Below are positions 799 to 64,000 of a DNA stretch of 64,000 nt, piece after piece. Under the pieces are notes generated by a model. That model saw only the letters and a list, made by a program, of their open reading frames with translations. It did no database searches and was not told where the DNA came from. The number at the start of each line of letters is the position of its first letter. Position 1 is the first letter of the stretch. This DNA is from Anas platyrhynchos (lineage: Eukaryota > Chordata > Aves > Anseriformes > Anatidae): the NCBI RefSeq assembly GCF_047663525.1, contig NC_092603.1, forward strand, positions 351,501 through 415,500. The letters are read 5' to 3'. The position numbers and the translations under genes were made by a program.

Positions 799-3700
799 CT
801 GGGGGGGGCAAAAGTGGGGGGGGGTCACTGAGAGGGTGGGGGGTTCCTGGGTATATGGGGGGGGGGCCTGGGGGGGTCCCAAAGGGGTCCTGGGGGTCCC
901 AGGGTATATGGGAAGGGGTCCTGGGGTGGGATTGGGGGTTTTGGGGGGGGTCCCAGGGTATTTGGGGGGGTCCCTGGGAGGGGGATTTGGGGTTTTTGGG
1001 TGGGTTCCATGGGTGGGACTTGGGTTTTGGGTTCCTTAGGGGAGGATTTGGGGTTTTGAGGTCCCTGAGGGGGGGGGGGGGGATTTGGGGTTTTGGGGGG
1101 TGTCCCTATGGGGTTGTGGTTCTGGGGGGGGGGGATTGGGGTTTTTGGGGTCCCTGGGGGGGGATTTGGGGTCCCTGGGGGTGGGACTTGAGGTTTTTGG
1201 GCTCCCTGGGGCGGATTTGGGTTTTTGGAGTCCCGGGGGTGGGGATTTGGGTTTTTGGGGTCCCTGGGGGGGGGGATTTGGGGTTTTTGGGGGGTCCCTA
1301 TGGGGTTGGGGTTCCTGGGGGGGGTTCTGGGGTCCCTGGGGGAGATTTGCGGGTCCTGGGGGTGGGATTTGGGGTTTTTGGGGTTCCTTGGGGGGGTATT
1401 GGGGATTTTTGGGGTCCCTGGGGGGGGGATTTGGGGTCCCTGGGGGTGGGATTTGGGATTTTTGGGGTCCCAGGGGTGGGATTTGGGGTTCTGGGGCTCC
1501 CTGGGGTGGGTTTTTGGGGTCCCGGGGGTGGGATTTGGGGTCCCTGGAGGGGGGATTTGGGATTTTTGGGCCCCCACCGTCGGTGGTGATGACGATGACG
1601 TGCCGGGTGCTGTTGGTGACGGGGGGGGGCCGCAGCCCCTGCATCTCCTCGCTGCGCTCCTGCTGCACCAGCAGCTCGTAGACGGCTCGCAGCGCCGCGT
1701 GCAGGTTGGTGCCGGGGCGCTGGGCGTGGGCTGCGGGAACAGCGCCCCACGGCTGCCCCATAGCGCCCCATAACCAACCCATGGCTGCCCCATAGCGCCC
1801 CACGGCTGCCCCATAGCGCCCCATAACCAACCCATGGCTGCCCCATAGCGCCCCACGGCTGCCCCATAGCGCCCCATAACCAACCCATGGCTGCCCCATA
1901 GCGCCCCACGGCTGCCCCATAGCGCCCCATGGCTGCCCCATAACTGCCCCATAACCACCCCACAGCGGCCCCATAACTGCCCCATAGCAGTCCCATGGTG
2001 ACCCCATAACTGCCCCATAGTGGCCCCATAGCGCCCCACGGCTGCCCCATGGCTGCCCTATGGCTGCGCTATAGGTGCCCCATAACCAACCCATGGCTGC
2101 CCCATAGCGCCCCACGGCTGCCCCATAGCGCCCCATAGCTGCCCCACAGGTGCCCCATAACCACCCTATGGCTGCCCTAGAGGTGCCCCATAACTGCACC
2201 ATGGCTGCCCCATAGCGCCCCATAGCTGCCCTATAGGTGTCCTATAGGTGCCCCATAGCAACCCCATAACTGCCCCATAGCGCCCCATGGCTGCCCCATA
2301 GCGCCCCACGGCTGCCCCATAGCACCCCATAACCAACCCATGGCTGCCCCATAGCGCCCCACGGCTGCCCCATAGCGCCCCATAGCAGTCCCATGGTGAC
2401 CCCATAACTGCCCCATAGTGGCCCCATAGCGCCCCACGGCTGCCCCATGGCTGCCCTATGGCTGCGCTATAGGTGCCCCATAACCAACCCATGGCTGCCC
2501 CATAGCTGCCCCACAGGTGCCCCATAACCACCCTATGGCTGCCCTAGAGGTGCCCCATAACTGCACCATGGCTGCCCCATAGCGCCCCACGGCTGCCCCA
2601 TAGCGCTCCATGGCTGCCCCATAGCGCCCCATAGCTGCTCTATAGGTGTCCCATGGTGACTCCATAACTGCCCCATGGCTGCCCCATAACTGCCCTATAG
2701 GTGCCCCATAGCGCCCCATGGCTGCCCCATGGCGCCCCATAACTGCCCCATAGCGCCCCATAACTGCCCTATAGGTGCCCCATAGTGGCCCCATGGCTGC
2801 CCCATAACCACCCCACGGCTGCCCTATAGCAGTCCCATGGTGACCCCATAACAGTCCCATAGCACCCCATGGCTGCCCCATAGCTGCCATATAGTGGCCC
2901 CATAGCTGCCCCATAACTGCCCCATAGGGACCCATAACTGCCCCATGGCACCCCATAGAGCACCCCACAACTGCCCCATAGAGCCCCATAACCACCCCAT
3001 AGCTGCCCCATAACCCCCCCATACCCCCCCATACCCCCCAAGGACCCCATAAACCCCCCCAGGACCCCCCCGGGAACCCCCAAACCCCCCCAGCCCCACC
3101 TCTGTGCGTGAGCCCCCCCAGGATCTCGACCACCTGGGCGCCGTCGGTGGCCCTGGGGTCCGTGGGGTTCAGCTCCACGATGGCGTCGGTGCCGAAGGTC
3201 ACGACCCCATAGCGGGGGCTGGCCCCATAGCTGGCGATCTGGGGGGGGGGCACGACATGGGGGGGTCCCCACCTGCTCGGAGGGGCCCTGGGGGCGTTTG
3301 GGGAGGATTTTGGGGGGATTCAGAGGGGTTTAGGGTGGTTTGGGGGGATTTGGGGGAGGAAATGTGTTTTGGGGAAATTTGGGGGGATTTGGGGAAAAAG
3401 GGTTTTGGGGGTATTTGGGGAGATTTAGGGGGATTTGGAGGATTTGGGCGATTTAGGGATGAAGATGTTTTGGGGAGGATTTGGGGGGGGAATGTGTTTT
3501 GGGGGAGTTTGGGGTATTTTGGGGGATTTGGGGGAGAAGGGTTTTGGGGGGGATTTGGGGAAATTCTGGGGGATTTGGGGCGTTTGGATGGGAAGGATTT
3601 TGGGGGGGCATTTGGGGGATTTGGAGTGGATTTTTGGGGGAGATTTGGGGGGTTTGGAGTGGAATTTTTTTGGTGGGGATTTCAGGGATTTAGGGGGGAT

Positions 3701-6700
3701 TTGGGGCACTTGGGGGAAGGTTTTGGGGGAGATTTGGGAGGATTTGGGGGATTTGTAGTGGATTTTTGGGGGAGATTTGGGGGGTTTGGAGTGGAATTTT
3801 TTGGGGTGATTTCAGGGATTTTGGGGGCTCTTGGGGGGAGGTTTTTGGGGTGAATTTGGGGGATTTGAGGGATTTAGGGCACTTGGGGGGAGGTTTTTTG
3901 GCGGTGATTTGGGGCACTTGGGGGAACGTTTTGGGAGAGATTTGGGGGGTTTGGAGTGGATTTTTTGGGGATGATTTCAGGGATTTTGGGGGCTCTCGGG
4001 GGAGGTTTTTGGGGAGATTTGGGAGGATTTGGGTGATTTGGAGTGGATTTTTGGGGGAGATTTGGGGGCTTTGGAGTGGATTTTTTTGGGATGATTTCAG
4101 GGATTTTGGGGGCTCTTGGGGGGAGGTTTTTGGGGTGAATTTGGGGGATTTGAGGGATTTAGGGCACTTGGGGGGAGGTTTTTGGCGGTGATTTGGGGCA
4201 CTTGGGGGAACGTTTTGGGAGAGATTTGGGGGGTTTGGAGTGGATTTTTTGGGGATGATTTCAGGGATTTTGGGGGCTCTCGGGGGGAGGTTTTTGGGGT
4301 GATTTGGGGTGTTTTTGGGGGCGCGGCACCTTCTCCACCAGCTGCTGCAGGGCCTCGCGCGCCTCCTGGAAGCGCCGGGGCTCGATGCTGTGCGAGGCGT
4401 CCAGCACCAGGAAGATGTTCAGCGCCGCGCCGGGGCCCAGCCGAATGCTGCGCTTCTCCGTCGTGCCTGCGGGACCCACAGCTGCCCCACGGCTGCCCCA
4501 TAGCGGCCCCATAGCTGCCCCATAACCTCCCCATAGATGGCCCATAGATAGCCCATAGCCACCCCATAACTGCCCCACGGCTGCCCCATAGAGACCCCAT
4601 AACCACTCCATAACTGCCCCATAGAGACCCCATAACCACCCCATAACTGCACCATGCCTGCCCCATAGATAGCCCATAGCCACCCCATAGATGGCCCATA
4701 ACCGCCCCATAGCTGCCCCATAGATAGCCCATAGCTACCCCATAACCGCCCCATAGCTGCCCCACAACCTCCCCATAGATGGCCCATAGATAGCCCATAG
4801 CCACCCCCATAACTGCCCCACAGCTGCCCCACAGAGACCCCATAACCACCCCATAACTGCACCATGGCCGCCCCATAGATAGCCCATGGCTGCCCCATAG
4901 AGACCCCATAACTGTCCACGGCTGCCCCATGGCTGCCCCATAACCATCCCATAACCACCCTATGGCTGCCCCATAGAGACCCCATAGAGACCCCATAGCC
5001 ACCCCCAGAACCACCCCATAGCTGCCCCATAGATGTCACATAGTCACCCCATAGAGACCCCATAACCGCCCCATAGCTGCCCCATAGACAGCCCATGGTG
5101 GCCCCACAGCTGCCCCATGGCTGCCCCACTGCTGACCCATAGCCGCCCCATAGATGTCACATACCTGCCCCATAGTGACCCCATAGCCCCCCCACGACCC
5201 CCCCATTCCCCCCATAGCCTCCCCATAGCCGCCCCATAGCCGCCCCACAGCTGCCCCATAGCTGCCCCATAGCCGCCCCATAGCCCCCCCCATAGCCGCC
5301 CCATAGCCGCCCCATAGCTGCCCCATAGCCCCCCCCTACTGAAGCTGTCGTTGGCCTCCGAGGCCTCCACGGTCTCGGTGAGGGAGGCGAGGAAGGAGGC
5401 GGGCCACGTCCTCGGGGGCGTCAAACGAGCTGGGGTCTGGGGGGGGGGGCAGGGGGGGGGCGTCACCCCCATAACACCCCCATATGGACCCCCCCACCCC
5501 CACCAGGGAGCCCCCCCAGGACCCCCAAAAGACCCCAGGGACCCCCCAAAGCCCCCCAGAGTCTCCCCCAAGATCCACCAGGGACCCCCCAAAACCCCCC
5601 AGGACCCCTCAAAGCCCCCCAGGGACCCTCCCAAGACCCCCAGGGACCCCCTCAAGACCCCCAAAAGCCCCCCAAAGCCCCTCAGGGACCCACCCAAGCC
5701 CCCCAGGACCCCCCCAGGGGACCCTCCCAAGCCCCCCCAAAGCCCCCCAGGATCCCCCCAGGGACCCCCCAGGACCCCCAAAGCCCCTCAAGACCCCCCC
5801 ACAGCCCCCAGGGACCCTCCCAACACCCCCCAGACCCCCCAGGCCCCCCCAGAAACCCTCCCAAGCCCCCCCAAGCCCCCCCAGGACCCCCCAAAGCCCC
5901 CCAGGACCCCCCCAAGGGACCCTCCCAACCCCCCAGGACCCCCCAAGACCCCCAGGGACCCCCCAGGACCCCCAAAGCCCCCCAGGGACCCCCCAGGGAC
6001 CCCCAAAGCCCCCCAGGACCCCCCTAGGACCCCCCCAGGACCCCCAAAGCCCCCCAGGGACCCCCCTAGTGACCCTCCCAACCCCCCCAGGACCCCCCCA
6101 GGACCCCCCACCTCTGCAGCGGGGCTCGGTGCCGCTCCAGACGCCCCCCTCGAGGCAGCGGCGCTCGGCCGAGCCGATGAGCGTCAGCCCCGGGCGGCAG
6201 CGGTACCGGACCCCGCGCCTCCACCTCCGACCCCGAGCCCTCCTTCGTGGCCCCCGGGGGCACCGCCGGCGCCGGGCACGCCCCGGCTGGGGGGAAAAAG
6301 GGGGATTTTGGGGCGTTTCGGGGCGTTTCGGGGCGTTTGGAGGTCATTTGGGGTCATTTGGGGTCATTTGGGGGTCACTTGGGGTCATTTGGGGGCATTC
6401 TGGGGGCTGGTTTGGGGCCATGTTGGGGTTTTGGGGACATTTTGGGGTCATTTGGGGCCGTTTTGGGGTTTGGGGGCCATTTTGGGGTTTTGGGATCATT
6501 TTGGGGTCAGTTAGAGGCCATTTGGGGTCAGTTGGGACAGGCCCCGGCTAAGGGGGAAATGGGGATTTTGGGGCATTTTGGGGCGTTTCGGGGCGTTTGG
6601 AGGTCATTTAGGGTCATTTGGGGTCACTTGGGGGTCACTTGGGGTCATCTGGGGGCATTCTGGGGGCTGGTTTGGGGCCATTTTGGGGTCGGTTGGGGCC

Positions 6701-9700
6701 ATTTTGTGGGGTTTGGGGGCATTTTGGGGTTTTGGGGGGCATTTGGGGGCATTTCGGGGGATTTTGGGGCCATTTGGGGGCATTCTGGGGACTGGTTTGG
6801 GGCCATGTTGGGGGTTTGGGGCCATTTGGGGGTCACTTGGGGGCATTCTGGGGGCTGGTTGGGGCCATTTTGGGGTTTTGGGGTCATTTTGTGGCCATTT
6901 GGGGTTATTTGGGGGTTTTGGAGGTCATTTGGGGGCATTCTGGGGGCTGGTTTAGGGCCATTTTGGGGTTTTGGGGCCATTTGGGCCTATTTGGGGGTCA
7001 CTTAGGGTCATTTTGGGGCCATTTTGGGGGTTTTGGGGGCCATTCCTGAGCCATTTTGGGGTCATTTCGGGCCATTTCTGGGCCATTTTGGGGCTGTTTT
7101 AGGGCCATTTCTGGGCCATTTTTGTCCATTTTGGTGCCAATTTTGTTTTTTTTCCCCCCCCCCCCACCTCACCTCCATCATCGCAGACGGGCATGGAGCC
7201 CCCCCAGCGCCCCCCCGGGCCGCAGGTTCGGTTTCGGGGCCCCCTGAGGACGAAGCCCTCGAAGCAGCCGAATTCCAGGCGGGAGCCGGGGCGGTGCCGC
7301 CCCCCCCGCGGCCAGAACCAGCCGTGGTCGAACTCCAGGGGGGCCGGGCACCACACGGCTGGGGGGGGGCGCGGGACCCTCAGGGGATGGACCCAGACCC
7401 CCCCCAGGTCACCCCAAAGACCCCTGAGAGAAGACCCCCAGAAACCCCCCCAGGACCCCAAGGGACCCCCTAGACCCCCCCAGGTCACCCCAAAGACCCC
7501 CCAGAGAAGGCCCCCAGAACCCCCAGACCCCCCCCCAAAGACCCCCCCCCAGACCCCCTAAGGGACCCCCAGACCCCCCAGGACCCCCAAGACCCCCCCA
7601 GGTCACCCCAAAGACCCCTGAGAGAAGACCCCCAGAACCCCCCCCAGGACCCCAAAGACCCCCCCCAAACCCCTTAAAGAAGACCCCCAGACCCCCCCCA
7701 GGTCACCCCAAAGACCCCTCAGAGAAGACCCCCAGAACCCCCCCCCCAGAACCCCAAGGGACCCCCAAGACCCCCCCCAGACCCCTTAAAGAAGACTCCC
7801 GGAACCCCCCCCCCAAGCCCCCAAGGGACCCCCGAACCTCCAGGACCCCCAAGACCCCCCCAGACACCCCAAAAGACCCCTTAAAGAAGACCCCCAGAAC
7901 CCCCCCCCAGGACCCCAAAGACCCCCCCCAGACCCCTTAAAGAAGACCCCCAGACCCCCCCTTGACCCCCAACCCCCCCCATTGATCCCCTATAGACCCC
8001 CAACGCCCCCCAATGACCCCAAAACCCCCCCAAAGACCCCCCCTTGACCCCCCACAGACCCCTTCCTTGACCCAAAAGCCCCCGAAAGCCCCCCCCATTG
8101 ACCCCCAAAGCCCCCCCAAAGACCCCCCCGACCCCCTATAGACCCCTAAAGCCCCCCCCATTGACCCCAAATCCCCCCAACCCCCTCCCACTGACCCCAA
8201 ATCCGCCCCCACTGACCCCAAATCTTCCCCCACTGACCCCAAATCCCCCCCCAATGACCCCCAAATCCCCCCAAATGCCCCCCAACCCCCCCTATTGACC
8301 CCCAAATCCCCCCCAGTGACCCCAAAGCCCCCCAATTGACCCCCTATAGACCCCTAAAGCCCCCCCCATTGACCCCAAATCCGCCCCCACTGACCCCAAA
8401 TCCCCCCCCAATGACCCCAAAGCCCCCCCCATTGACCCCAAAGCCCCCCCTATTGACCCCCAAAGCCCCCCAAATGCCCCCCAACCCCCCCCACTGACCC
8501 CAAATCCCCCCCAATTGACCCCCAAATGCCCCCCCCCAAGGCCTCACCTCGGCAGTGGGGGGTGACCCCCCCCGGCAGGGGCTCCCAGCCCTTCCCGGGG
8601 GTGCAGCGGCGGAGGCTGCTGGGGGCGGGGGCGGTGCCGGGGGGGCAGTGGTAGCGCAGGGCCTCGCCCCCCCCCACCAGCTCCCACGAGCCCCCCTTGA
8701 TGGGGGCCAGCGCCGGGTCGCAGGGGGGGGGGGGCTCCAGGGTGGCCGGGGGGGTCGTGGGGGGAGCCGGGGGGGGCGTGGGGGTGGCTGTGGGGAGAAG
8801 GGGGGGGGGCGTTAATTGGGGTGGGGGGCGGTTGTGGGGGGGCTATGGGGGGTTATGGGGTGGTTATGGGGCGGTTATGGGGCAGCCATGGGGCAGGGGA
8901 CACCAGGATGTGGGGCAGCTATGGGGCAGAGGGGTTGGGGGGTGGTTATGGGGCAGCTATGGGGGGAGTTATAGGGGGCTATGGGGCAGCTATGGGGGCG
9001 TTGTGGGGCGGTTATGGGGCAGCTATGGGGCAGGGGACACCAGGATGTGGGGCAGCTATGGGGCAGAGGGGTTGGGGGGTGGTTATGGGGCAGCTATGGG
9101 GGGAGTTATAGGGGGCTATGGGGCAGCTATGGGGGCGTTGTGGGGCGGTTATGGGGCAGCTATGGGGCAGGGGACACCAGGATGTGGGGCAGCTATGGGG
9201 CAGAGGGGTTGGGGGGTGGTTATGGGGCAGCTATGGGGGGAGTTATAGGGGGCTATGGGGCAGCTATGGGGGCGTTGTGGGGCGGTTATGGGGCAGCTAT
9301 GGGGCAGGGGACACCAGGATGTGGGGCAGCTATGGGGCAGAGAGGCTGTGGGGCAGTTATGGGGGGGTTCTGGGGCAGCTATGGGGCAGGAGACACCGGG
9401 ACGTGGGGCAGCTATGGGGCGGAGGGGTTGTGGGGTGGTTGTGGGGCAGCTATGGGGTGGTTATGGGGCAGCTATGGGGCACAGAGCTTGTGGGGCAGCT
9501 ATGGGGTGATATGGGGCAGGCAGGTTATGGGGCAGCTATGGGGCAGGGGACACCAGGACATGGGGCAGCTATGGGGGATTACAGGACAGCTATGGGGCAG
9601 AGGGGATGTGGGGCAGCTATGGGGGTTATGGGGCGGTTATGGGGCAGCTATGGGGCAGGGGATTTGGGGGGGGGGGGGCACCAACCAGCTGCGAGGGGGG

Positions 9701-10429: not shown

Positions 10430-11209
10430 GGCGGGGGGGCCAATGTGGGTCACAGCTATGGGTCTGGCTATGGGTCTGGCTATGGGTTCCCCTATAGGAC
10501 TCGCTATGGGTCCGGCTATGGGTCCAGCTATGGGTCCAGCTATGGGTCCAGCTATGGGTCCGGCTATGGGTCCGGCTATGGGGCCCACCATGGGTCCTTT
10601 TGGGGGTCACAGTGAGGGTCCTGCTATGGGTCCAGCTATGGGTCAGGCTATGGGTCTGTTTGTGGGTCCCAGCATGGATCCCCCCATAGCTGCTGTGGGT
10701 CCGGCTATGGGTCCAGCTATGGGGCCCACCATAGGACTCAGCTATGGGTCCAGCTATGGGTCCGGCTGTGGGTCTGGCTATCTGTTCCCCTATAGGACTC
10801 GCTATGGGTCTGGATAAGGGTCTGGCTGTGGGTCCAGCTATGGGTCATGCTATGGGTCCCACCATAGGACTCGCTATGGGTCCAGCTGTGGGTCTGGTTA
10901 TGGGTCCCCCCGTAAGACTTGCTATGGGTCCGGCTATGGGTCGCGCTGTGGGTCCGGCTATGGGTCCCGCTGTGGGTCCCGCTGTGGATCACGCTATGGG
11001 TCGCGCTATGGGTCCGGCTATGGGTCGTGCTGTGGGTTGCGCTGTGGGTCCCGCTATGGGTCGCGCTATGGGTCCCGCTGTGGGTCCAGCTATGGGTCCC
11101 GCTGTGGGTCGCGCTGTGGGTCTGGTTATGGGTCCCCCTGTAAGACTTGCTATGGGTCGCGCTATGGGTCCAGCTATGGGTCTGGCTATGGGTCCGGCTA
11201 TGGGTCGCG
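10430..11209. repeat. 12-bp minisatellite making up the C2 3' UTR
   Basis: Plus-strand ATGGGTCCGGCT units (variants ATGGGTCGCGCT, ATGGGTCCAGCT) run from the C2 stop codon almost to its poly(A) signal. Being a multiple of three, the repeat leaves long open frames. Confidence 0.9.
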
Positions 11210-11420
11210 CTATGGGTCGCGCTGTGGGGCGCGCAGGGGGGCGAAGCGCAGCTGCCCCCCCAGGTGCTGGCGCAGCCAGGGCTGGACGCCGGAAGAGGCT
11301 GATGTGGAAGTCGCGGGGGCCGGTGGCCGGGGGGGGGGGGGCGCGCGCAGCAGCCGCCCCTCGGCGTCGCGGCCCCCCCCCCCGGCACGGGTCGAAGGTG
11401 CCCCAGCTCAGAACCCCCAC
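11210..11420 (-). CDS. C2: C2 last exon, C-terminus and stop
   Basis: Reads [22 protein letters not shown] and [18 protein letters not shown], each matching the C2 C-terminus. The three pieces are in different frames, with breaks at runs 11373-11383 and 11329-11341 and at 11287-11292. The stop TAG at 11212-11210 lies in the first unit of the downstream minisatellite. Confidence 0.85.
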
Positions 11421-14400
11421 CTGTGGGGCACGGATGGGGGGCGGGTTGGGGTCCCCATGGGGTTGGGGACCCCCATGTGGGACCCCCCATTTGGGGACCC
11501 TCATTTGGGGACCCCCAACTTAGGGACCCCCATTTGGGGACCCCCATGTGGGACCCCCAGGTTGGAGACCCTCATTTGGGGACCCCAAGTTGGGGACCCC
11601 CATTTGGGACCCCCCGTTTAGGGACCCCCAAGTTGGGGACCCCAGGTTGGAGACCCCCATTTGGGGACCCCCCATTTGGAGACCCCCATTTGGGGACCCC
11701 AAGTTGGGGACCCCCATTTGGGACCCCCCATTTAGGGACCCCCAACTTAGGGACCCAGGGTTGGGAACCCCAAGTTTGGGGACCCCCCATTTGGGGACCC
11801 CCAAGTTGGGGACCCCCCATTTAGGGACCCCCAACTTAGGGACCCAGGGTTGGGGACCCCAGGTTGGAGACCCCCAGGTTTGGGGACCCCCATTTGGGAC
11901 CCCCAAGTTGGGGACCCCCTGGTTTGGGGACACCCGGGGGGTCCCAGGGGGGTCCCGGGGGGGTCCCGGGGGTCGTTGTTGCCCCCCCCGGCGCTCACCT
12001 GGATGAAGCGGTGCCGGCGCTCGAGGAACAGCGAGCTGCCCGACTCCCCTGGGGGCGGGAGGGGGGTGTTGGGGACATCGGGGGGGGATTTGGGGATGTT
12101 GGGGGGGGATTTGGGGACACTGGGAGGGGGAAATTTGGGGACATTGGGGACATCGGGACAGGAAATTTGGGATTTGGGGACATTGGGACATGGGGACTGG
12201 GGAATTGGGGACATTGGGAGGGGGATTTGGGGACACTGGGGACATGGGGACAGGGGGACACCAGACACCGGGATTTGGGGTCAGGGGGTTATGGGGTCCC
12301 AGGGATTTGGGGTCAGGGGGCGTTGGGGACATAGGGACAGGGGACATGGGGTCAGGGGGATATGGGGACACCAGGCCAATGGATTTGGGGTCGGGGGGTT
12401 ATGGGGCCGTGGGGATTTGGGGTCAGGGGCCTTTTGGGGCTTTTTGGGCTTTTTGGGCTTTTTGGGACCTTTGCAGGCGGTGTCCTCGCGCTGGCCGCCG
12501 CTCTCCTGGCCGGTGCAGAGGAAGCGTGGGGTGAGCACGGCCCCCAGGGACGCGTTGGCCAGGGGGGTCCCCGGCTGCACCGCCCCCGCCTCGCAGGTGG
12601 CTCGCTGGGGGGCACAGGGGGACGGGGGTCATGGGGAGGTCACAGGGGGGTCACAGAGGGGTCACATAGGGTCACATGGGGTCACGGCTATGGGTCCAGG
12701 CTATGGGGCAGGATCCAAGCTATGGGGCAGGGTCTGGGCTATGGGTCTGGGCTATGGGGTGGGATCCAATCTATGGGTCCGAGCTATGGGGCAGAGCCCT
12801 GGGTATGGGTCTGGACCCAATCTATGGGTCGGGGCTATGGGGTAGGGCTATGGGTCAGGATCCAAGCTACGGGTCCGAGCTATGGGGCAGGACCCGATCT
12901 ATGGGTCTGGGCTATGGGGCAGGGCTATGGGTCGGGGGCTCAGCTATGAGTCTGGGCTATGGGTCTGGGTTATGGGGCAGGGCCCTGGCAATGGGTCTGA
13001 GCTATGGGGCAGGATTCAATCTATGGGTCTGGGCTATGGGTCCGAGCTATGGGGCAGGGTCTGGGCTATGGGTCTGGACCCAATCTATGGGTTGGGGCTA
13101 TGGGTCTGGGCTATGGGTCTGGGCTATGGGGCAGGGCCCTGGCTATGGGTCTGGCCCCGATCTATGGGTCTGGGCTATGGGTCTGGCCCCGATCTATGGG
13201 TCCGGGCTATGGGTCCGGCCCCAATCTATGGGGCAGGGCTATGGGTCTGGCCCCGATCTATGGGTCTGGGCTATGGGTCCGGCCCCGATCTATGGGGCAG
13301 GGCTACGGGTCCGGCCCTGATCTATGGGTCCAGGCTATGGGTCCGGGCTATGGGTCTGGCCCCGATCTATGGGTCAGGGCTATGGGTCCGGCCCCGATCT
13401 ATGGGTCCGGGCTATGGGTCCGGCCCCGATCTATGGGGCAGGCTATGGGGCAGGACCCAGTCTCTCACCGCCTCGTGCTCCTTGATGGTCACCCTCAGGC
13501 GCTGCCCCTGCAGGGACACGAACTCGGCCGGGACCCGCGGGCGGCCCAGGAGCTCAGCCTCTGGGGGGGGCAGGGGGGGGTCAGAGGCAGCCCCCGACCC
13601 CCGGGACCCCCCCAAAACCCCCCCGGCCCCCCCCCACCTTGCTCCTCGCAGCTGGTCCCGGGGGGCTTCCTCAGGGCTCTGTTGGCGTCCTCGGTGCAGG
13701 GGATGCAGACCCTCCTTTTTTTTGGGGGGGGGGGCACAAAATTTAGGGCTTTTTGGGGGGTCCCGGCTTTGTGGCCCCCCCCCAGCACCCCAAAACTCAC
13801 CGGGGGGGGCCCTGGGGGTCCCGGCTCGTCCTCCAGCTCCACCAGGGCCACGTCGTAGTCGTAGAATTCGGGGGACCCCCCCGCGCCGCCCCCCCCCGCA
13901 CGTCGAAGGCTTCGTGGGAGACCCAGGCCCGGATGGGGACCTGGCGGCCCCCCCCTGCACCCCACAGCACCGGGGGGGGGTCAGGGGGGGATTTGGGTCC
14001 CCAAGGGGATTTGGGGGGGGGATTTGGGGTCTCTTGAGGCACTGGGGGGGGGGGTCAGGGGGGGATTTGGGGTCCCCAAGGGAATGGGGGGGGTCAGGGG
14101 GGGGATTTGGGGTCCTCAGGGGGAATTGGGGGGGGTCAGGGGGGGGATTTGGGTCCTCAGGGGGAGTGGGGGGGGTTTGGGGGGGGGATTGGGGTCCCCC
14201 GAGGCATTGGGGTCAGGATTTTGGGGTCCCCTCTGTCATGGGGTCTGGGTTTTGGGGGTCCCCATGGGCATTAGGGTGGGGGTCCCAGGTTTTGGGGTCC
14301 CCAGGGGCTTTAGGGTCAGGATTTTGGGGTCCCCTGGGCCATTGGGATCCAGGTTTTGGGGTCCCCTGGGGTATTGGGGTGGGGGTTTTGGGGTGGGGGT

Positions 14401-17400: not shown

Positions 17401-20400
17401 GCTGGGGGGGTGTGAAATGGGGGTTGGGGGGGCTAAAATGGGGCTGGGGGGGAACAAAATGGGGCTGGGGGGGTGTAAAGTGGGGTTATGGGGGGGCTAT
17501 GGGGGTGTGAAATGGGGCTGGGGGGGTAAAATGGGGCTGGGGGGGAAAAATGGGGCTGGGGGGGTGTAAAGTGGGGCTGGGGGGGTTAAAATGGGTCTGG
17601 GGGCACCGAGGGGGGGGTCTGGGGGTGCCCCCCCCCCGGGGGGGTGGGGGCGGGGGCCGGCTCCGTGCCCTGGCCCAGGCCAAGGCCGAGCGGGGGCCGC
17701 GACCGCGCGGGCGGGGGGGGGGGGCAGGGGGGGGGCAGGGGGGGGGGCACCCAAGGGTGGCGCAAGAGCAAACAGGGGGGGGGCAAAGGGCGGCGGGGGG
17801 GGGGAGGGGGCGGATTTTGGGACCCAAATCTGCCTGGAGGGGCCCGGGGCACAATTGGGACCCCCCCGGAGCCCCCCCCAAGACCCCCAGAGACCCCCCC
17901 AGAGCCCCCAAAAGCCCCCCAGGGACCCCAAACCCCCCCCAATTACCCCAAACCCCCCCCAATGACCCCAACCCCCCCCAAAAAAAAACAAAATCCCCCC
18001 CCGATGCCTCCCAAAGCCCCCAAAGCCCCCCCAATGCCCCCCAACCCCCCCGTGATGCCCCCCCCAAACCCCCCCAGCCCCCCCCGACCCCCCTTGCCCC
18101 CCACCCACCCAAAAACTCCCGGCGGTCCGGCTCCGTCTCCAGCGCGTCCTCGATCTTGGCCACCGCCTCGCGCGGGTTCCCCCCACGTTGAACCTCCCTG
18201 GGGGGGCACGGGGCGATGGAGACCCCCCAAAAAAAACCCAAAGACCCCCCAAAACTCCCCAAAGACCCCCAAAACCCCCAAAGACCCCCCCCAAAATAAA
18301 ACAGTGACCCCACGTCTCCAATCTTGACCTTCGCCTGCCGCGGGTTCCCGCCGACGTTGACCAACCCAGCGGGACCCCCCAAAACCCCCCAAAATCCCCC
18401 AAAATCCCCCTCAAAGTCCCCCAAAGACCCCTGAAGACCCCCAAAGACCCCAAATCCCCCCCCAAAACCCCCAAAGACCCCATATCCTCAATCTTGACCT
18501 CTGTCTACCACTCCCTCCAACGTTGACCAACCCAACGGGACGCAAGTCAACCGATACCCCCCGAAACCCCCCAAAACCCCCCAAAACCCCCCCAAATCCC
18601 CCTGTAAGCCCCCCTCAAAGACCCCTGAAGACCCCAAATCCCCCCCCCAAAAAAAAACAAGACCCCACATCCTCAACCTTGACCTCCACCTACCATGGTT
18701 TCCCTCCAACGTTGACCAACCCAACGGGACGCAACTCAACCGATCCCCCCCAAAACCCCCCAAAACCCCCCCTCAAAGACCCCCAAAGACCCCTGAAGAC
18801 CCCAAATTCCCCCCAAAACCCCCCAAAGACCCCCAAAGACCCCACATCCTCAACCTTGACCTCCACCTACCATGGTTTCCCTCCAACGTTGACCAACCCA
18901 ACAGGACGCAACTCAACCGATCCCCCCCAAAACCCCCCAAACCCCCCCAAATCCCCCCATAAGCCCCCCCCAAAGACCCCTGAAGACCCCAACTCCCCCC
19001 CAAAACCCCCAAGACCCCATATCCTCAACCTTGACCTCTGCCTACCGCTGTCTTCCTCCAACGTTGACCAACCCAACGGGACGCAAGTCAACCGATACCC
19101 CCCAAAACCCCCCAAAACCCCCAAAACCCCCCATAACCCCCCCCTCAAAGACCCCCAAAGACCCCTGAAGACCCCAAATCCCCCCCAAAGACCCCCAAAA
19201 CCCCACATCCTCAACCTTGACCTCCACCTACCACTGTTTCCCTCCAACGTTGACCAACCCAACGGGACGCAACTCAACCGACACCCCCAAAACCCCCAAA
19301 ACCCCCCAAAACCCCACCTCAAAGACCCCCAAAGACCCCTGAAGACCCCAAATCCCCCCCAAAGACCCCCAAAACCTCACATCCTCAACCTTGACCTCCA
19401 CCTACCATGGTTTCCCTCCAACGTTGACCAACCCAACGGGATGCAACTCAACCGATCCCCCCCAAAACCCCCCAAATCCCCCCAAAACAACCCTCAAAGT
19501 CCCCCAAAGACCCCTGAAGACCCAAAGACCCCAAATCCCCCCCCAAAGACCCCCAAAGACCCCACATCCTCAACCTTGACCTCCACCTACCGCAGTCTTC
19601 CTCCAACATTGACCAACCCAACGGGACACAACTCAACCGATCCCCCCCAAAACCCCCAAAATCCCCCAAAACCCCACCTCAAAGACCCCCAAAGACCCCT
19701 GAAGACCCCAAATCCCCCCCAAAGACCCCCAAAACCCCACATCCTCAACCTTGACCTCCGCCTACCGTGATTTCCCTCCAACGTTGACCAACCCAACGGG
19801 ATGCAAGTCAACCGATCCCCCCCAAAACCCCCCGAAACCCTCCAAAACCACCCATAACCCCCCCCCAAAGACCCCTGAAGACCCCAAACCCTCCAAAACC
19901 CCCCAAAGACCCCACATCCTCAACCTTGACCACCACCTACCACTGTTTCCCTCCAACGTTGACCAACCCAACGGGACGCAACTCAACCGACACCCCCCAA
20001 AACCCCCCGAAAACCCCCCAAACCACCCAAAACCCCACCTCAAAGACCCCCAAAGACCCCTGAAGACCCCAAATCCCCCCCAAAGACCCCCCAAGACCCC
20101 CCAAGACCCCCCATCCTCAATCTTGACCTCTGTCTACCACTGTTTCCCTCCAACGTTGACCAACCCAACGGGACGCAACTCAACCAATACCCCCCAAAAC
20201 CCCCCAAAACCCCCCGAAACCCCCCCAAATCCCCCCGTAAGCCCCCCCCAAAGACCCCCAAAGACCCCCAAAACTTCCCAAAGACCCCATATCCTCAACC
20301 TTGACCTCCACCTACCATGGTTTCCCTCCAACGTTGACCAACCCAACGGGACGCAAGTCAACCGATACCCCCCAAAACCCCCCAAAACCCCCAAAACCCC

Positions 20401-23400
20401 CCCTCAAAGACCCCCAAAGACCCCTGAAGACCCCAAATCCCCCCCAAACACCCTCCAAGACCCCCCAAGACCCCCCAAGACCCCACATCCTCAACCTTGA
20501 CCTCCACCTACTGCAGGTTCCCTCCAACGTTGACCAACCCAACGGGACGCAACTCAACCGATACCCCCCAAAAGCCCCCGAAACCCCCCAAAACCCCCAT
20601 AAATCCCCCCATAACCCCCCCAAACCCCCCCCAGAGCCCACCATCGGTCAGCAGGAACACCACGTGCCGCGTTTGGCGCCAGGCGTCGGGCTGGCCGGCC
20701 CGCGCCGCGCGCTCCTTGTGGTAGAGCACCATGTGGTAGACCTCCATCAGCGCCGCCCGCGCGTTGGTGCCCGTCGCGTTCCCGTGCTCTATTTTTTTGG
20801 GGGGGGGGACACAAAATCACGGGGGTCCCGGCCCCGTTGTCACCCCCCCCCACCCAAAAGGGGTCGTACCGGCCAGGGTGATGTTGTTGAGGCGCTCGAT
20901 GGCCTCGTCGGCGTCGGCCGAGGCGTCCTCGGCGGTGGAGAGGGCGACGCGCGCCCGGCTGCCGAAGGAGACGGCGGCGAAACGCAGCGGGACCTCGAAA
21001 CTGCTCAGCTGGGGGGGGGGCGGGAAATGGGGGGGGGGCTGGGACCGTGCTGGGGGGGGCTGGGGTCATTTGGGGGGGGGGCTGGCACCGTGCTGGGGGG
21101 GGCTGGGGTCATTGGGGGGGGGGCTGAGGCTGTTTGGGGGGGCTGGGGTCGTTTGGGTGGGTCCTGGGCTCATTTTGGGGGGTTCCGACCTCATTTGGGG
21201 GGTCCTGAGCTCATCTTGGGGGGTCCTGGGATCATTTGGGGGGGGCCCTGGTGCTGTTGGGGGGGGCTGGGATCGTTTTGGGGGGTCCTGATGCTCTTTG
21301 GGGGGGCCTGGGATCATTTTGGGGGGTCCTGGGCTCATTTTGAAGGGGTTCCGACCTCATTTGGGGGGTCCTGAGCTCATCTTGGGGGGGCTGGGATCAT
21401 TTTGGGGGGGTCCTGAGGCTGTTTGGGGGGGCTGGGATCGTTTGGGGGGGTCCTGATCTCATTTTGGGGGGTTCCGACCTCATTTGGGGGGTCCTGAGCT
21501 CATCTTGGGGGGGGCTGGGATCATTTGGGGGGGCCTGATGCTCTTTGGGGGGCCTAGAATCATTTGGGGGGGGTCCTGATACCATTTGGGGGGGCCTGGG
21601 ATCGTTTTGGGGGGATCCTGACCTCATTTTGGGGGGTTCTGAGCTCATCTTGGGGGGGGTCTGGGCTCATTTTGGGGGGGGCTGAGGCTCTTTGGGGGGG
21701 CCTGAGGTTGTTTGGGGGGGGCTGGGATTGTTTTGGGGTGTCCCAATCTCATTTGGGGGGTCCTGAGATCATTTGGGGGGGGTCCTGGTGCTGTTCGGGG
21801 GGGTCTGCGCTCATTTTGGGGTGCCCCAATCTCATTTGGGGGATCCTGGGATCATTTGGGGGGGGGCTGAGGCTCTTTGGGGGGGGCTGGAATCATTTTG
21901 GGGGGTCCTGGGTTCATTTGGGGGGGGCCCTGGTGCTGTTGGGGGGGGCTGGGATCGTTTTGGGGGGTCCTGATGCTCTTTGGGGGGGCCTAGAATCATT
22001 TGGGGGGGTCCTGATCTCATTTTGGGGGGTTCCAACCTCATTTGGGGGGTCCTGAGCTCATCTTGGGGGGGGTCTGGGCTCATTTGGGGGGGTCCTGATG
22101 CCATTTGGGGGGCCTGGGCTCATTTTGGGAGTCGACCCCGACTCCCCTTGACCCCAAATCCCCCCTGAAGCCCCCCAAAGCCCCCAGACTCTATTTAGAG
22201 CCCCCCAACCCCAACTGGAGACCCCAAAACCCAACTGGAAGCCCCCCAACCCCAACGCAACCAAGACCCAACACCCAAACCCCCAGCCCCAAGCCCCCCG
22301 CCCCCGACTCCCCTTGACCCCAAACCCCTCCCCAAATCCCCCCAAGCCCCCCCAAGGCCCCCAGACCCTATTTAGAGCCCCCAACCCCAACTGGAGACCC
22401 CCAAACCCAACTGGAGACCCCCAAACCCAACTGGAGATGCCCAACCCAAGACCCAACACCCAAACCCCCAAACCCAAACCCCCGCCCCGACTCCCCTTGA
22501 CCCCAAACCCCTCCCCAAATTCCCCTAAGCCCCCCCAAAGCCCCCAGACTCTATTTAGAGCCCCCCAACCCCAACTGGAGACCCCAAAACCCAACTGGAA
22601 GCCCCCCAACCCCAACGCAACCAAGACCCAACACCCAAACCCCCAACCCCAAACCCCCCGCCCCCGACTCCCCTTGACCCCAAATCCCCCCTGAAGCCCC
22701 CAGACCCCATTTGGAGCCCCCAGACCCAATTTAGAGCCCCCCAACCCCAACTGGAGACCCCAAAACCCAACTGGAGACCCTCAACCCCAACGCAACCAAG
22801 ACCCAACACCCAAACCCCCAACCCCAAACCCCCCGACCCCGACTCCCCTTGACCCCAAACCCCTCCCCAAATTCCCCCAAGCTCCCCCAAAGCCCCCAGA
22901 CCCTATTTAGAGCCCCCCAACCCCAACTGGAGACCCCAAAACCCAACTGGAGACCCCAAAACCCAACTGGAGATGCCCAACCTAAGACCCAACACCCAAA
23001 CCCCCAACCCCAAACCCCCCGACCCCGACTCCCCTTGACCCCAAATCCCCCCTGAAGCCCCCAGACCCCATTTGGAGCCCCCAGACCCAATTTAGAGCCC
23101 CCCAACCCCAACTGGAGACCCCCAAACCCAACTGGAAGCCCCCCAACCCCAACGCAACCAAGACCCAACACCCAACCCCCCAACCCCAAACCCCCCGACC
23201 CCAACTCCCCTTGACCCCAAATCCCCCCTGAAGCCCCCAGACCGCATTTGGAGCCCCCAGACCCAATTTAGAGCCCCCCAACCCCAATTGAAACCCCCAA
23301 ACCCAACTGGAGACACCCAAACCCAACTGGAAGCCCCCCAACCCCAACACAACCAAGACCCAGCCCCCAAACCCCCAACCCCAAACCCCCCGACCCCGAC

Positions 23401-31859: not shown

Positions 31860-32080
31860 GTTGCGGGGCGGGCGCCCGGCCCACCCCCCTCCCACACCGT
31901 GCCCCGGCACCGCTCAGGGTGGGCGCCCGCGCTCTCGGCAGCCAGGGTTTGGTGCTGCCGGGGGACGCTGCCGGCTTCGGGGCGGTGACATCAGGGCGAG
32001 GGGGGCTGCTGGGGGTAACTGACAACTCAAAGTGGTGCTTGGTGAGCAGGATGGTGGCGTGCAGACCGGACGTTGGCTGG
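31860..32080 (+). other. ZBTB12 3' flank, probable 3' UTR
   Basis: Non-repetitive GC-rich DNA after the stop codon. It passes into the 42-bp array without a poly(A) signal. Confidence 0.45.
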
Positions 32081-32084
32081 TGGG

Positions 32085-34430
32085 GGCGGCCAACTGGGAC
32101 GCTGTGGTTGGCCATCGGTTGATGGGTTTGGCCAACTGGAACGCTATGGTTGGTCATTGACTGAAGGGTTTGGCCAACTGGAACGCCATCGTTCCATCAT
32201 TGGTTGATGGATTTGGCCAACTGGGACACTGTGGTTGGTCATCGACTGATGGGTTTGGTCAACGGAACATTTGGCAATGGGTTTGGCCAACTGGAACACC
32301 ATGGTTGGTGATGGACTGATGGGTTTGGTCAACAGAACATTGGGCAATGGGTTTGGCCAACTGGAACGCTGTGGTTGATGATCGACCGATGGATTTGGCC
32401 AATCGAAACTCCATCGTTCATCATTGGTTGATGGATTTGGCCAAGTGGGACGCTGTGGTTGGCCATCGGTTGATGGATTTGGCCAACGGAGATGGTTGAT
32501 GGGTTTGGTCGACTGGAACGCCGTAGATTGATAATTGGTTGAAGGATTTGGCCAACTGGGCAGTTGTGGTTGGCCATCGGTTGATGGGTTTGGCCAACGG
32601 AACATTGGGCGATGGATTTGGCCAACTGGAACACCATTAGTGATCAGCTGAAGGATTTGGCCAACTGGGACAGTCTGGGTGTGCGACTGATGGGTTTAGG
32701 CCAACGGAACATTGGGCGATGAATTTGGCCAACTGGAATGCCATGGTTTGTCGTTGGTTGATGGGTTTGGCCAACTGGAACACCATGGTTGGTCATCGAC
32801 TGATGGGTTTGGTCAACAGAACATTTGGCAATGGGTTTGGCCAACTGAAAAACCGATGATTTGTGGTTGGCTTGATGGGTTTGGTCAAGTGGGCCACTGT
32901 GGTTGGCCATCAATTGAAGGGTTTGGCCAACTGGAACATTGGGCAATGGATTTGGCCAACTGGAAGGCTGTGGTTGGCCATCGGTTGATGGATTTGGCCA
33001 ATGGAACATTGTCCAATGGTTTTGACCAATTGAAACGCCATCGTTTGTCACTGGTTGATGGGTTTGGCCAACTAGATGGAACACTGTGGTTGGTCATCGA
33101 CTGATCAATTGGGCCAACTGGAACACCATCATTCGTCATTGGTTGAAGGATTTGGCCAACTGGGATGCTGTGGTTGGTCATCGGTTGATGGGTTTGGCCA
33201 ACGGAACATTGGGCAATGGGTACTAATTGGAACACCGTGGTTGGTCATTGACTGGAGGATTTGGCCAACTTGAACGATTTGGTTGCTCAACTGATGGGTT
33301 TGGCCAACGATGGGCGATGGGTTTGGCCAACTGGAACGCTGTGGTTGGCCATCGACGATGAATTTCGCCAACTGGAATGCCATCGTTTTTCGTTGGTTGA
33401 TGGGTTTGGCCAACTGGAAAGCGGTGGTTGGCCATCGGTTGATGGATTTTGGCCAACAGAACATGGGCGCTGGATTTGAACCACTGAGTGGAATGCTGTG
33501 GCTTGTGATTGGTTGATGGGTTTGGCCAAGTGGGATGCTGTGGTTGGTCACTGACTGATGGGTTTGGCCAACTGGAACACCACTGGTCATTGACTGATGG
33601 ATTTGGCCAAAAGAAGTCTGCCAAAAGGGTTTGGCCAACTGGGACGCTGTGGTTGGTCATCGACTATGGGTTTGGCCAACAGAAGATTGTCCAAAAGGGT
33701 TCAGCCTACTGGGACGCTGTTGGCGATTGGTCATTGGTTGATGGGTTTGGCCAACTGGAACGCCGTGGTTGGCCATCAGTTGATGGATTTGGCCAACGGA
33801 ACGCTGTTCCAATGGGTTTGGCCAACTGGAACGCCGTCATTCGTCACTGGTTGATGGGTTTGGCCAACTGGAACGCTGTGGTTGGACATCGGTTGATGGA
33901 TTTGGCCAACAGAACATTGGGCGATGGGTTTGGCTGTTGGGAACACCGGTTTTAGTCATTGGCTGATGGATTGGCCAACTGGAACACCAGCGTTTGTCAC
34001 TGGTTGATGGGTTTGGCCAACTGGAACGCCGTGATTCATCATTGGCCAATGGATTTGGCCAACTGGGACACCTCGGTTGGTCATTGGCTGATCATTTTGG
34101 CCAAAAGAACATTGTGCCGATGAGTTTGGCCAACTGGGAGCACCAGTTAGTCATTGGTTGATGGATTTGGCCAACAGGACATTGGGCGATGGGTTTTGGC
34201 CAACTGGAGCGCCGCGATTGGTCATCGACTGATGGGTTTGGCCAATCAGAACGCCGTGGCTCACCGTTGGCTCGTGGTTCGGCCAATCAGACGTTGACTG
34301 CGGGGTTTGGCCAACCCGTCATTGGCCGATGGGTTTCGCGTGCCTGCCACGCCGTGGCTTGTGATTGGCTGATGGGTTTGGCCAACTGAACTGTCCCTTG
34401 TGATTGGCCGATGGATTTGGGCAGCCAGCT
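32085..34430. repeat. 42-bp minisatellite between ZBTB12 and EHMT2
   Basis: About 55 imperfect units of GGTTTGGCCAACTGGAACGC plus TGGTTGGTCATCGACTGAT. Forty-two is a multiple of three, so frames on both strands stay open with a 14-residue period. Each unit has TTGGCCAA or GGCCAA, an NFI-like half site. It may be transcribed as ZBTB12 3' UTR. Confidence 0.9.
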
Positions 34431-34640
34431 GGATTGGATGGCCTGGGGCGGCTGCCCTTGCCATTGGACGGGGGCTCGGCCATCATGGTCCGAAGATCCT
34501 GATCTGGACGACGACCTCGGCCAGGTCTGGAGACCCTCGGCTTCTGACTGGACAACGGTTCAGCCAGGGGGCGTGGCTCACCTCAACAAGCCAGATGGCT
34601 ACATTGATGTCATCACAGGGGGGCGGGGCTTGGTTTTGGG
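34430..34640. other. non-repetitive segment after the 42-bp array
   Basis: Unique-looking sequence without recognisable gene content. Parts resemble decayed 42-bp units (GATTGGCCGATGG). Confidence 0.4.
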
Positions 34641-35165
34641 GATACCCAGGGGAGATTTGGGGCCCCCGAGTGGTGCCCCCCCCCCCGGTGGGCCCCCCAG
34701 GTTTTGGGGTGGGCCCCCCCAATTTTGGGGTGACCCCCCTCAATTTTGGGGTGCCCTCCCCCTGGGGGACCCCAAAATTTTGGGGTGGGCCCCCCAGATT
34801 TTGGGGGTGGCCCCCCACTGGCCCCCAGATTTTGGGGGTGCCCCCCTTGATTTTGGGGTGGCCCCCCATCTTGGTGGCCCCCAAATTTGGGGTAGATCCC
34901 CAAGATTTTGGGGTGACCCCAGATTTTGGGGTGCCCTTCCTGGGGCCCCCAGATTTTGGGTTGTGGCCCCCCCCAGTGGCCCTCCAGATTTTGGGGTGCC
35001 CCCCCCCAAATTTTGGAATGCCCCCCCACCCTTGGGGCTCCCACCTTTTGGGGTGCCCCCCAGATTTTGGGGTGCCCCCCCCAGTGGCCCCCAGCTTTTG
35101 GTGGGGGGGGGCTGGGACCCATCCTGGTGGGGGGGGTCCCCCAAAATTTTTAGGGGGGGGGGTTG
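34640..35165. repeat. CCCCCAGATTTTGGGGTG minisatellite
   Basis: Imperfect 20-25 bp units alternating C-run, ATTTTGGGG and GTGGCC. Self-complementary CCCC...GGGG pairs could fold. No gene signal. Confidence 0.78.
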
Positions 35166-35397
35166 GGGGGGGGTCCCCGTTTCTCCCTGTAGCTCGTAGT
35201 GACCGGGGGGGGGTCCTGGGGGGGCTCCGGTCGCGTAGAGGAACGGGGGGGGGGGGGGGGGTTTGGGGGGGGGGGCGGATTTTGGGGGGTGGGGGGAGAG
35301 ATTTGGGGGGGGGGCTAAGGGAGGGGCGTAGAGCTGGGGGGGGGGGTTGAGGGGGGGGTGGGGGAGGGGGCCGCGGCGCTGCTTTTAGAGATTTTGT

Positions 35398-35403
35398 AAT
35401 AAA
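35398..35403 (+). terminator. AATAAA poly(A) signal, candidate for ZBTB12
   Basis: AATAAA followed by an A-rich stretch, 330 bp before the EHMT2 start codon. It is the first plus-strand hexamer I noticed after the ZBTB12 stop, which would give a 3.5-kb 3' UTR containing the 42-bp array. Confidence 0.4.
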
Positions 35404-35504
35404 GGAAAGTGAAAAAAAAAAACACAAAAAAAATGAGGCGAAAACAGGCGAAAATGGGGCTGGGGGGGGGGGGAGGGGGAAAAGCGCGCGCTCCTCGCTC
35501 CCCC

Positions 35505-35732
35505 GCCCGCGGGAAAAGCCGCGTGGCCACGCCCCCCTCTAAGCCACGCCCCCCTCGGCCACGCCCCCTCAGCGCGGCCACCCTCACGTGGCCACGCCCC
35601 CTCCCCCGTGGCACCGCCCCCATGGGCGGGGCGAGCGGCTCGGCCACGCCCCCCTCCTCGTGGCCACGCCCACCCAGCGTGGCCACGCCCCCCGCGTTAC
35701 GCGGTGACGTCCGACGCAGCGCGCGCGGCGCG
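35505..35732 (+). promoter_or_regulatory. CpG-rich EHMT2 promoter and 5' UTR
   Basis: CpG-dense sequence just before the EHMT2 ATG, with about eight CCACGCCC boxes (KLF/SP type) and a TGACGT half-CRE at 35704. No TATA box. A housekeeping CpG-island promoter is inferred. Confidence 0.55.

Positions 35733-64000
<28,268 letters not shown>

What the first reader, a model, noticed from the sequence alone, without database searches (positions are those of the whole stretch)
18109..60800. Intronic arrays that repeatedly capture the edge of the neighbouring exon
Seven exons in two genes (C2 18109-18197; EHMT2 exons 11, 12, 14, 20, 21 and 22) have downstream or upstream tandem copies of exactly the exon part that faces the repeat-filled intron, usually with the splice site. 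3' ends are copied downstream, 5' ends upstream. This points to a local duplication process whose unit overlaps exon borders, giving ladders of potential alternative donors or acceptors.
Basis: partly seen in the sequence, partly recalled or inferred. Interest (0 to 1): 0.82.

Follow-up and report, generated by a model that had tools for sequence, protein, structure and literature searches.

The report
Exon edges copied into repeat-filled introns
In two genes of what looks like a bird's small GC-rich chromosome, the tandem repeats that fill the introns include copies of the neighbouring exon's edge; the pattern is real, but it is a fresh example of 'exon stuttering', described in chickens in 2026.

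Summary
Against 152 swapped edge sequences each ranks first, except E21, second to a C/G-run edge. Homology runs from 20-53 bp of exon on into the intron. Copies are diverged, so they are not simple assembly duplicates. Splice dinucleotides are kept in the six EHMT2 arrays (13 of 14 donors, 5 of 5 acceptors) but in none of 13 C2 copies. '3' ends downstream, 5' ends upstream' is what any tandem duplication across an exon border must give. A simple random-placement model expects 2.9-11.1 of 26 long introns; seven are seen, so no exon-seeking process is needed. The same phenomenon is published as 'exon stuttering' on chicken dot chromosomes (Hron et al. 2026, PMC12954441). Its main text names neither EHMT nor MHC; its supplements were out of reach. 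Verdict: new member of a known kind. Use of the copied splice sites is untested, and the species is inferred.

The parts
18109..18197 (-). C2 exon c8 (vWA part); its 5' 53 bp are the part copied
   Evidence: C2 identity
18313..20533 (-). 13 diverged copies of the c8 5' edge in the intron upstream of it (in gene sense), spaced 166-197 bp; none keeps the acceptor AG
   Evidence: (2 of 13 by BLAST)
42706..42845 (+).
42977..43341 (+). three downstream copies of the exon 11 3' end with donor GT (one, near 43140-43172, degenerate and seen only by alignment)
44991..45130 (+). EHMT2 exon 12; 3' 41 bp copied
45231..45760 (+). three downstream units with copies of the exon 12 3' end; donor GT kept in two of three (one copy found by BLAST, two by alignment)
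48896..49078 (+). EHMT2 exon 14; 3' 25 bp copied
49218..50380 (+). seven downstream units of about 165 bp, each with the exon 14 3' end and donor GT
54387..54418 (+). single upstream copy of the first 32 bp of exon 20 (32 of 32 identical), preceded by the copied acceptor
55754..55908 (+). EHMT2 exon 20 (ankyrin repeats)
56894..58315 (+). four upstream copies of the first about 20 bp of exon 21 with acceptor AG (at about 56894, 57398, 57918 and 58296; the first seen only by alignment)
58860..59027 (+). EHMT2 exon 21
60176..60320 (+). EHMT2 exon 22; 3' 20 bp copied
60724..60891 (+). single downstream copy of the exon 22 3' end (20 bp, 90%) with donor GT and following intron
10446..11228 (-).

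Best explanation
This is exon stuttering as described for bird dot chromosomes. In GC-rich introns filled with tandem repeats, local tandem duplications of tens to hundreds of bases arise with breakpoints placed more or less at random. Some units straddle an exon border. Such a unit leaves the whole exon intact on its outer side and puts a copy of the exon edge, with its splice site, on the intron side; later duplication and array turnover multiply and then degrade the copies. Shown here: the copies, their strand and place, the match across the borders, their divergence, and a frequency compatible with random placement. Inferred: the DNA process (slippage or template switching at G-rich DNA, unequal exchange or conversion between units), that the source is a bird dot chromosome, and that the copies are mostly neutral for splicing.
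For: Facing intron and same strand only for all seven edges; rank 1 of 152 in six and 2 of 152 in one; match from 20-53 bp of exon on into intron; the 26 introns of 300 bp or more are 87% covered by tandem repeats, length-weighted; seven of 26 against 2.9-11.1 expected from random placement; the C2 array lost its acceptor in 13 of 13 copies. Published chicken cases match in captured length (20-187 bp, median 36), copy number (1-44, median 4) and inclusion of the splice site.
Against: The species is not known, since the own-genome search did not complete. Length variation between individuals, a main feature of stuttering, is untested. Only three of 34 introns pass the published 42.1-bit cut. 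The E14 exon-derived stretch is the most conserved window of its unit (0.987), more than plain decay would suggest. The random-placement model rests on assumed founders and ancestral intron lengths.
Confidence: 0.87

Rival explanations
1. Assembly or polishing artefact: noisy long reads in G-rich repeats were mis-joined, making false copies of exon edges.
For: Several exons switch frame in this assembly (EHMT2 exons 12, 13, 14, 16, 17 and C2 c8, read against recalled or solved relatives), so the consensus has errors or real damage. The exon 20 copy is identical over its 32 exon bases.
Against: Units differ from one another (mean identity about 0.80 at E14 and 0.77 at C2 between neighbours), unlike read duplication. 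Exons 18-23, which include three of the seven edges, read as one unbroken 251-residue frame. The chicken authors checked one such gene, PHF8, in raw nanopore data.
Confidence: 0.06
2. Functional ladder: the copies are kept as alternative donors or acceptors that change the transcripts.
For: 13 of 14 copied donors keep GT and 5 of 5 copied EHMT2 acceptors keep AG, most with scores near the true site (the matrix includes the true sites, which favours their copies). Four of 13 donor extensions are multiples of three. The E14 exon-derived stretch is its unit's most conserved window.
Against: 0 of 13 acceptors kept in C2. The C2 exon-derived part is no better conserved than the 40 columns beside it (0.877 against 0.888). 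123 of 1042 GT sites in the EHMT2 region score >= 6, so the copies are not special. 4 of 13 is what chance would give.
Confidence: 0.04
3. An exon-seeking mechanism (for example RNA-templated or splicing-linked copying) starts duplications at exon borders.
For: Captured exon lengths are short (20-53 bp) and in the published screen over 90% of copied exon sources lie within one base of the border.
Against: The match runs well into the intron in all seven cases, as DNA-level duplication requires; the number of captured edges fits random placement; a unit straddling a border must touch it, and a unit holding a whole exon would probably be selected against.
Confidence: 0.02
4. Chance low-complexity matches.
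For: Nineteen of 76 edges give matches in other places or strands, and one of 11 proximal hits in the repeated screen is at shuffle level.
Against: None of the seven edges matches anywhere else; five of the seven exceed the maximum of 20 shuffles; ranks 1 or 2 of 152.
Confidence: 0.01

Closest known systems
Exon stuttering / sequence stuttering on avian dot chromosomes (Hron et al. 2026, Genome Biol Evol evag038, PMC12954441). Seen: abstract and outline, the repeat-expansion, discussion and screen-method sections, part 1 of 2 of the population section, and passages
   Same: Part of an exon edge with its donor or acceptor copied in imperfect tandem through the adjacent intron; repeat-filled introns; captured length and copy number in the published range.
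   Different: Other genes, perhaps another species (unknown here); length variation between individuals not tested; one array (C2) has lost the splice site in every copy; only three of 34 introns pass the published bit-score cut.
Intron gain by tandem genomic duplication (potato RdRp case, PeerJ 2016, PMC4974935; seen only as search listings with the start of the abstract)
   Same: A tandem duplication inside a gene has consequences for splice-site content.
   Different: By its title and abstract start that case makes a new intron; here existing introns grow and no new intron is shown.
Chicken dot chromosomes (Huang et al. 2023, PNAS, PMC9974502; passages seen)
   Same: GC-rich, gene-rich small chromosomes, the setting proposed here.
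   Different: The passages seen treat chromosome structure and satellites, not copies of exon edges; membership of this window in such a chromosome is inferred.

Membership tests
Exon stuttering (Hron et al. [quoted passage not shown]
   Seven edges, facing intron, same strand
Exon stuttering (Hron et al. 2026) | Copied source lies at the exon border and continues into intron | tested here: met
   All seven
Exon stuttering (Hron et al. 2026) | Proximal hit above the published 42.1-bit cut | tested here: inconclusive
   Met by E11, E14 and E20; E21 40.1 and E12 38.2 just below; C2 c8 and E22 not found by that screen
Exon stuttering (Hron et al. 2026) | Introns largely covered by tandem repeats | tested here: met
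   Length-weighted mean 87% over 26 introns of 300 bp or more
Exon stuttering (Hron et al. [quoted passage not shown]
   Six of seven edges: 13 of 14 donors, 5 of 5 acceptors; not met in C2, 0 of 13
Exon stuttering (Hron et al. 2026) | Intron length varies between individuals | not testable with these tools
   No reads or second individual available
Exon stuttering (Hron et al. 2026) | Location on an avian dot chromosome | tested here: inconclusive
   Mostly 58-70% GC per 2 kb up to 60000, with 0.516-0.547 in two bins and lower at the end; species and chromosome unknown because the genome search did not complete

The most novel reading that the evidence does not exclude
Intronic copies of an exon edge act as a store that can rewrite, or be rewritten by, the working exon through conversion. 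In EHMT2 the intronic copy ending at 45470 reads closer to the EHMT1/2 Cys-rich family than the assembled exon 12 edge does (78.7 against 63.3 bits in hand-joined proteins), as if the better version of the exon end now sits in the intron. Consensus error in the assembled exon is the simpler reason and is not excluded.
Probability: 0.05. Interest if true: 0.7.

Novelty: new member of a known kind. Interest (0 to 1): 0.35.

Why it matters
It adds two conserved genes, apparently in the class III neighbourhood CFB-C2-ZBTB12-EHMT2, to those whose exon edges are no longer unique in the genome. That bears on annotation, read mapping and polishing, and gives seven arrays of seemingly different age in which the fate of copied splice sites can be followed. 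It also shows that the striking direction rule and the frequency need no exon-seeking process. The strangeness of the phenomenon itself has already been reported.

Tried and rejected
Chance low-complexity matching: rejected for five edges by shuffles and for all seven by place and strand. Exon-targeted mechanism: not needed; that model assumes one founder per intron, the top-scoring tandem period, and ancestral introns of 80, 150, 300, 600 or 1200 bp (10.6, 11.1, 10.1, 5.9 and 2.9 of 26 expected). Recurrence of the first 60 intron bases at 68 intron edges: the captured edges are spread through the ranking and three of seven (C2 c8, E11 and, narrowly above zero, E12 aside) do not stand out, because intron sequence is so repetitive; to be exact, C2 c8 and E11 score better in other introns than in their own, so this test was dropped as uninformative. 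Higher-order repeats: E12 units look alternating and two E14 units share a variant, but identity by lag is flat (0.78-0.82 at E14, 0.77-0.79 at C2), so no claim is made. Selection on copied splice sites: no consistent sign. Junction microhomology: a G run at E21 and a shared GTT at E20 are visible, without count or control. Rfam: no match at gathering score. EHMT2 relatives in viral contigs: none confirmed. Not surveyed: EHMT2 exons before 39124, CFB exons between b2 and b5 and beyond the window edge, C2's first exon, ZBTB12. The comparison of 3 of 34 introns here with 190 of 5,572 in chicken is not a fair test, as this window was picked for the pattern.

Full report
What is there. By translation and position the window holds CFB and C2 on the minus strand and ZBTB12 and EHMT2 on the plus strand. 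The joined exons 18-23 (251 residues) match solved EHMT1/EHMT2 chains: EHMT1 ankyrin chain 6by9, E 2.6e-73 over residues 2-162, and EHMT2 chain 9lus, E 1e-49, 172.4 bits over 164-251, against 168 bits for the best EHMT1 chain there. The top rows of that listing are other ankyrin-repeat proteins (4rlv first, 8.4e-81), so EHMT2 rests on the pre-SET part and on the neighbours. The vWA exons match complement C2 best (2odp 1.5e-29; factor B 1q0p 1.1e-22). That CFB-C2-ZBTB12-EHMT2 is the order of the mammalian MHC class III region is recalled, not taken from a call. ZBTB12 rests on position, recall and C2H2 zinc fingers in one of two pieces scanned. That the source is a bird is inferred from base composition and repeat style; the genome search did not complete.

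Checking the observation. I defined 38 exons and queried 60 bp of each of their 76 edges against the exon-masked window. Nineteen edges had only hits in other places or on the other strand; 49 had none. In the swap control each of the seven introns was scored against 152 sequences (76 edges, both strands); the true edge came first in six and second in E21. The 13 C2 copies each ranked the true edge first, but they had been picked by a short motif from that edge, so this is partly circular, and one (18526) scores 21 against 20 for the next edge. Repeating the published screen's BLAST task gave three of 34 introns above 42.1 bits, two more above the 36.2-bit maximum of 20 shuffles, and one proximal hit, inside exon 13, at shuffle level.

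Anatomy. Exon 11 has three downstream copies, exon 12 three, exon 14 seven with a unit of about 165 bp, exon 20 one upstream copy with 32 of 32 exon bases identical, exon 21 four upstream, exon 22 one downstream, and C2 exon c8 thirteen upstream spaced 166-197 bp. Of these 32 copies, BLAST found 17; one of exon 11, two of exon 12, one of exon 21 and eleven of C2 were seen only by alignment, and the middle copy of exon 11 is degenerate. In all seven cases the match runs from 20-53 bp of exon into intron. The C2 copies are 0.58-0.67 identical to the exon edge, while that part is 0.88 identical among copies: apparently an old capture that later expanded by itself.

Splice sites. The copied donors keep GT in 13 of 14 cases and the copied acceptors keep AG in 5 of 5 for the EHMT2 arrays. 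Most score near the true site under a matrix built from this window's own sites, a measure that favours copies of sites in the matrix. In C2 none of 13 keeps the AG. Extension of the exon to a copied donor would be a multiple of three in 4 of 13 cases. The E14 exon-derived stretch is the most conserved window of its unit (0.987); the C2 one is not more conserved than the 40 columns beside it (0.877 against 0.888). I see no consistent sign of selection.

How it works. A tandem duplication that spans an exon's 3' border gives exon-end, intron-start, exon-end, intron-start, so copies lie downstream; at a 5' border they lie upstream. If the top-scoring tandem period of each of the 26 introns of at least 300 bp is placed at random, between 2.9 (ancestral introns of 1200 bp) and 11.1 (150 bp) are expected to capture 20 bp or more of exon; seven do. 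The DNA process behind the duplications is inferred, not shown.

What is known. Hron and colleagues (PMC12954441) describe this in chicken: a lateral part of an exon with its splice site copied through the adjacent intron; 1,345 hits in 236 introns of 115 genes, 190 of the introns on dot chromosomes; exon parts of 20-187 bp, median 36; 1-44 copies, median 4; more than 90% of sources within one base of the border; 183 of 192 such introns variable in length between birds. They saw local repeat expansions in some other birds too, and suggest replication stress at G-rich DNA or meiotic conversion as possible causes. EHMT2, EHMT and MHC do not occur in the main text; supplements were out of reach. 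A search for 'exon stuttering' lists only that paper; a search for EHMT2, ZBTB12, birds and MHC class III lists one zebrafish survey; searches list no other description of the phenomenon by title or abstract start.

Sequence quality. EHMT2 exons 12, 13, 14, 16 and 17 change frame within the exon when read against recalled relatives, and C2 c8 against the C2 alignment; exons 18-23 read as one frame. The copy ending at 45470 fits the Cys-rich family PF21533 better than the assembled exon 12 edge, 78.7 against 63.3 bits, in hand-joined proteins. Consensus error is the simplest reason; conversion between exon and copy is the bold one.

Noticed in passing
10446-11228 (C2 last exon 11210-11420, minus strand): The joined C2 reading frame ends inside a 12-bp satellite of about 65 copies, which seems to supply the last codons and the stop codon.
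   Followed up: partly
42706-53428: Several EHMT2 exons here (12, 13, 14, 16, 17) switch frame, while exons 18-23 (53515-61613) read cleanly: consensus errors seem clustered in part of the locus.
   Followed up: partly
45427-45470: The intronic copy of the exon 12 edge reads KHHCCPGCGHFCTA and scores 15.4 bits higher in the EHMT1/2 Cys-rich model than the assembled exon edge.
   Followed up: partly
30697-31860: A single-exon ZBTB12-like gene with zinc fingers whose reading frame appears to switch several times.
   Followed up: no
32050-34450: A long array after the ZBTB12-like gene built on 'TTTGGCCAACTGGAAC'-like units, lower in GC (0.516 in the 32001-34000 bin) than the surroundings.
   Followed up: no
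1744-3023, 4475-5329, 8825-9658, 12719-13458: Arrays sharing a CCCATAGC / GCTATGGGG-like core recur in separate CFB and C2 introns.
   Followed up: no
61700-64000: An AT-richer array of units like CTCCTTGAAACCCTCATTTTATTT fills the EHMT2 intron after exon 23 up to the window end.
   Followed up: no
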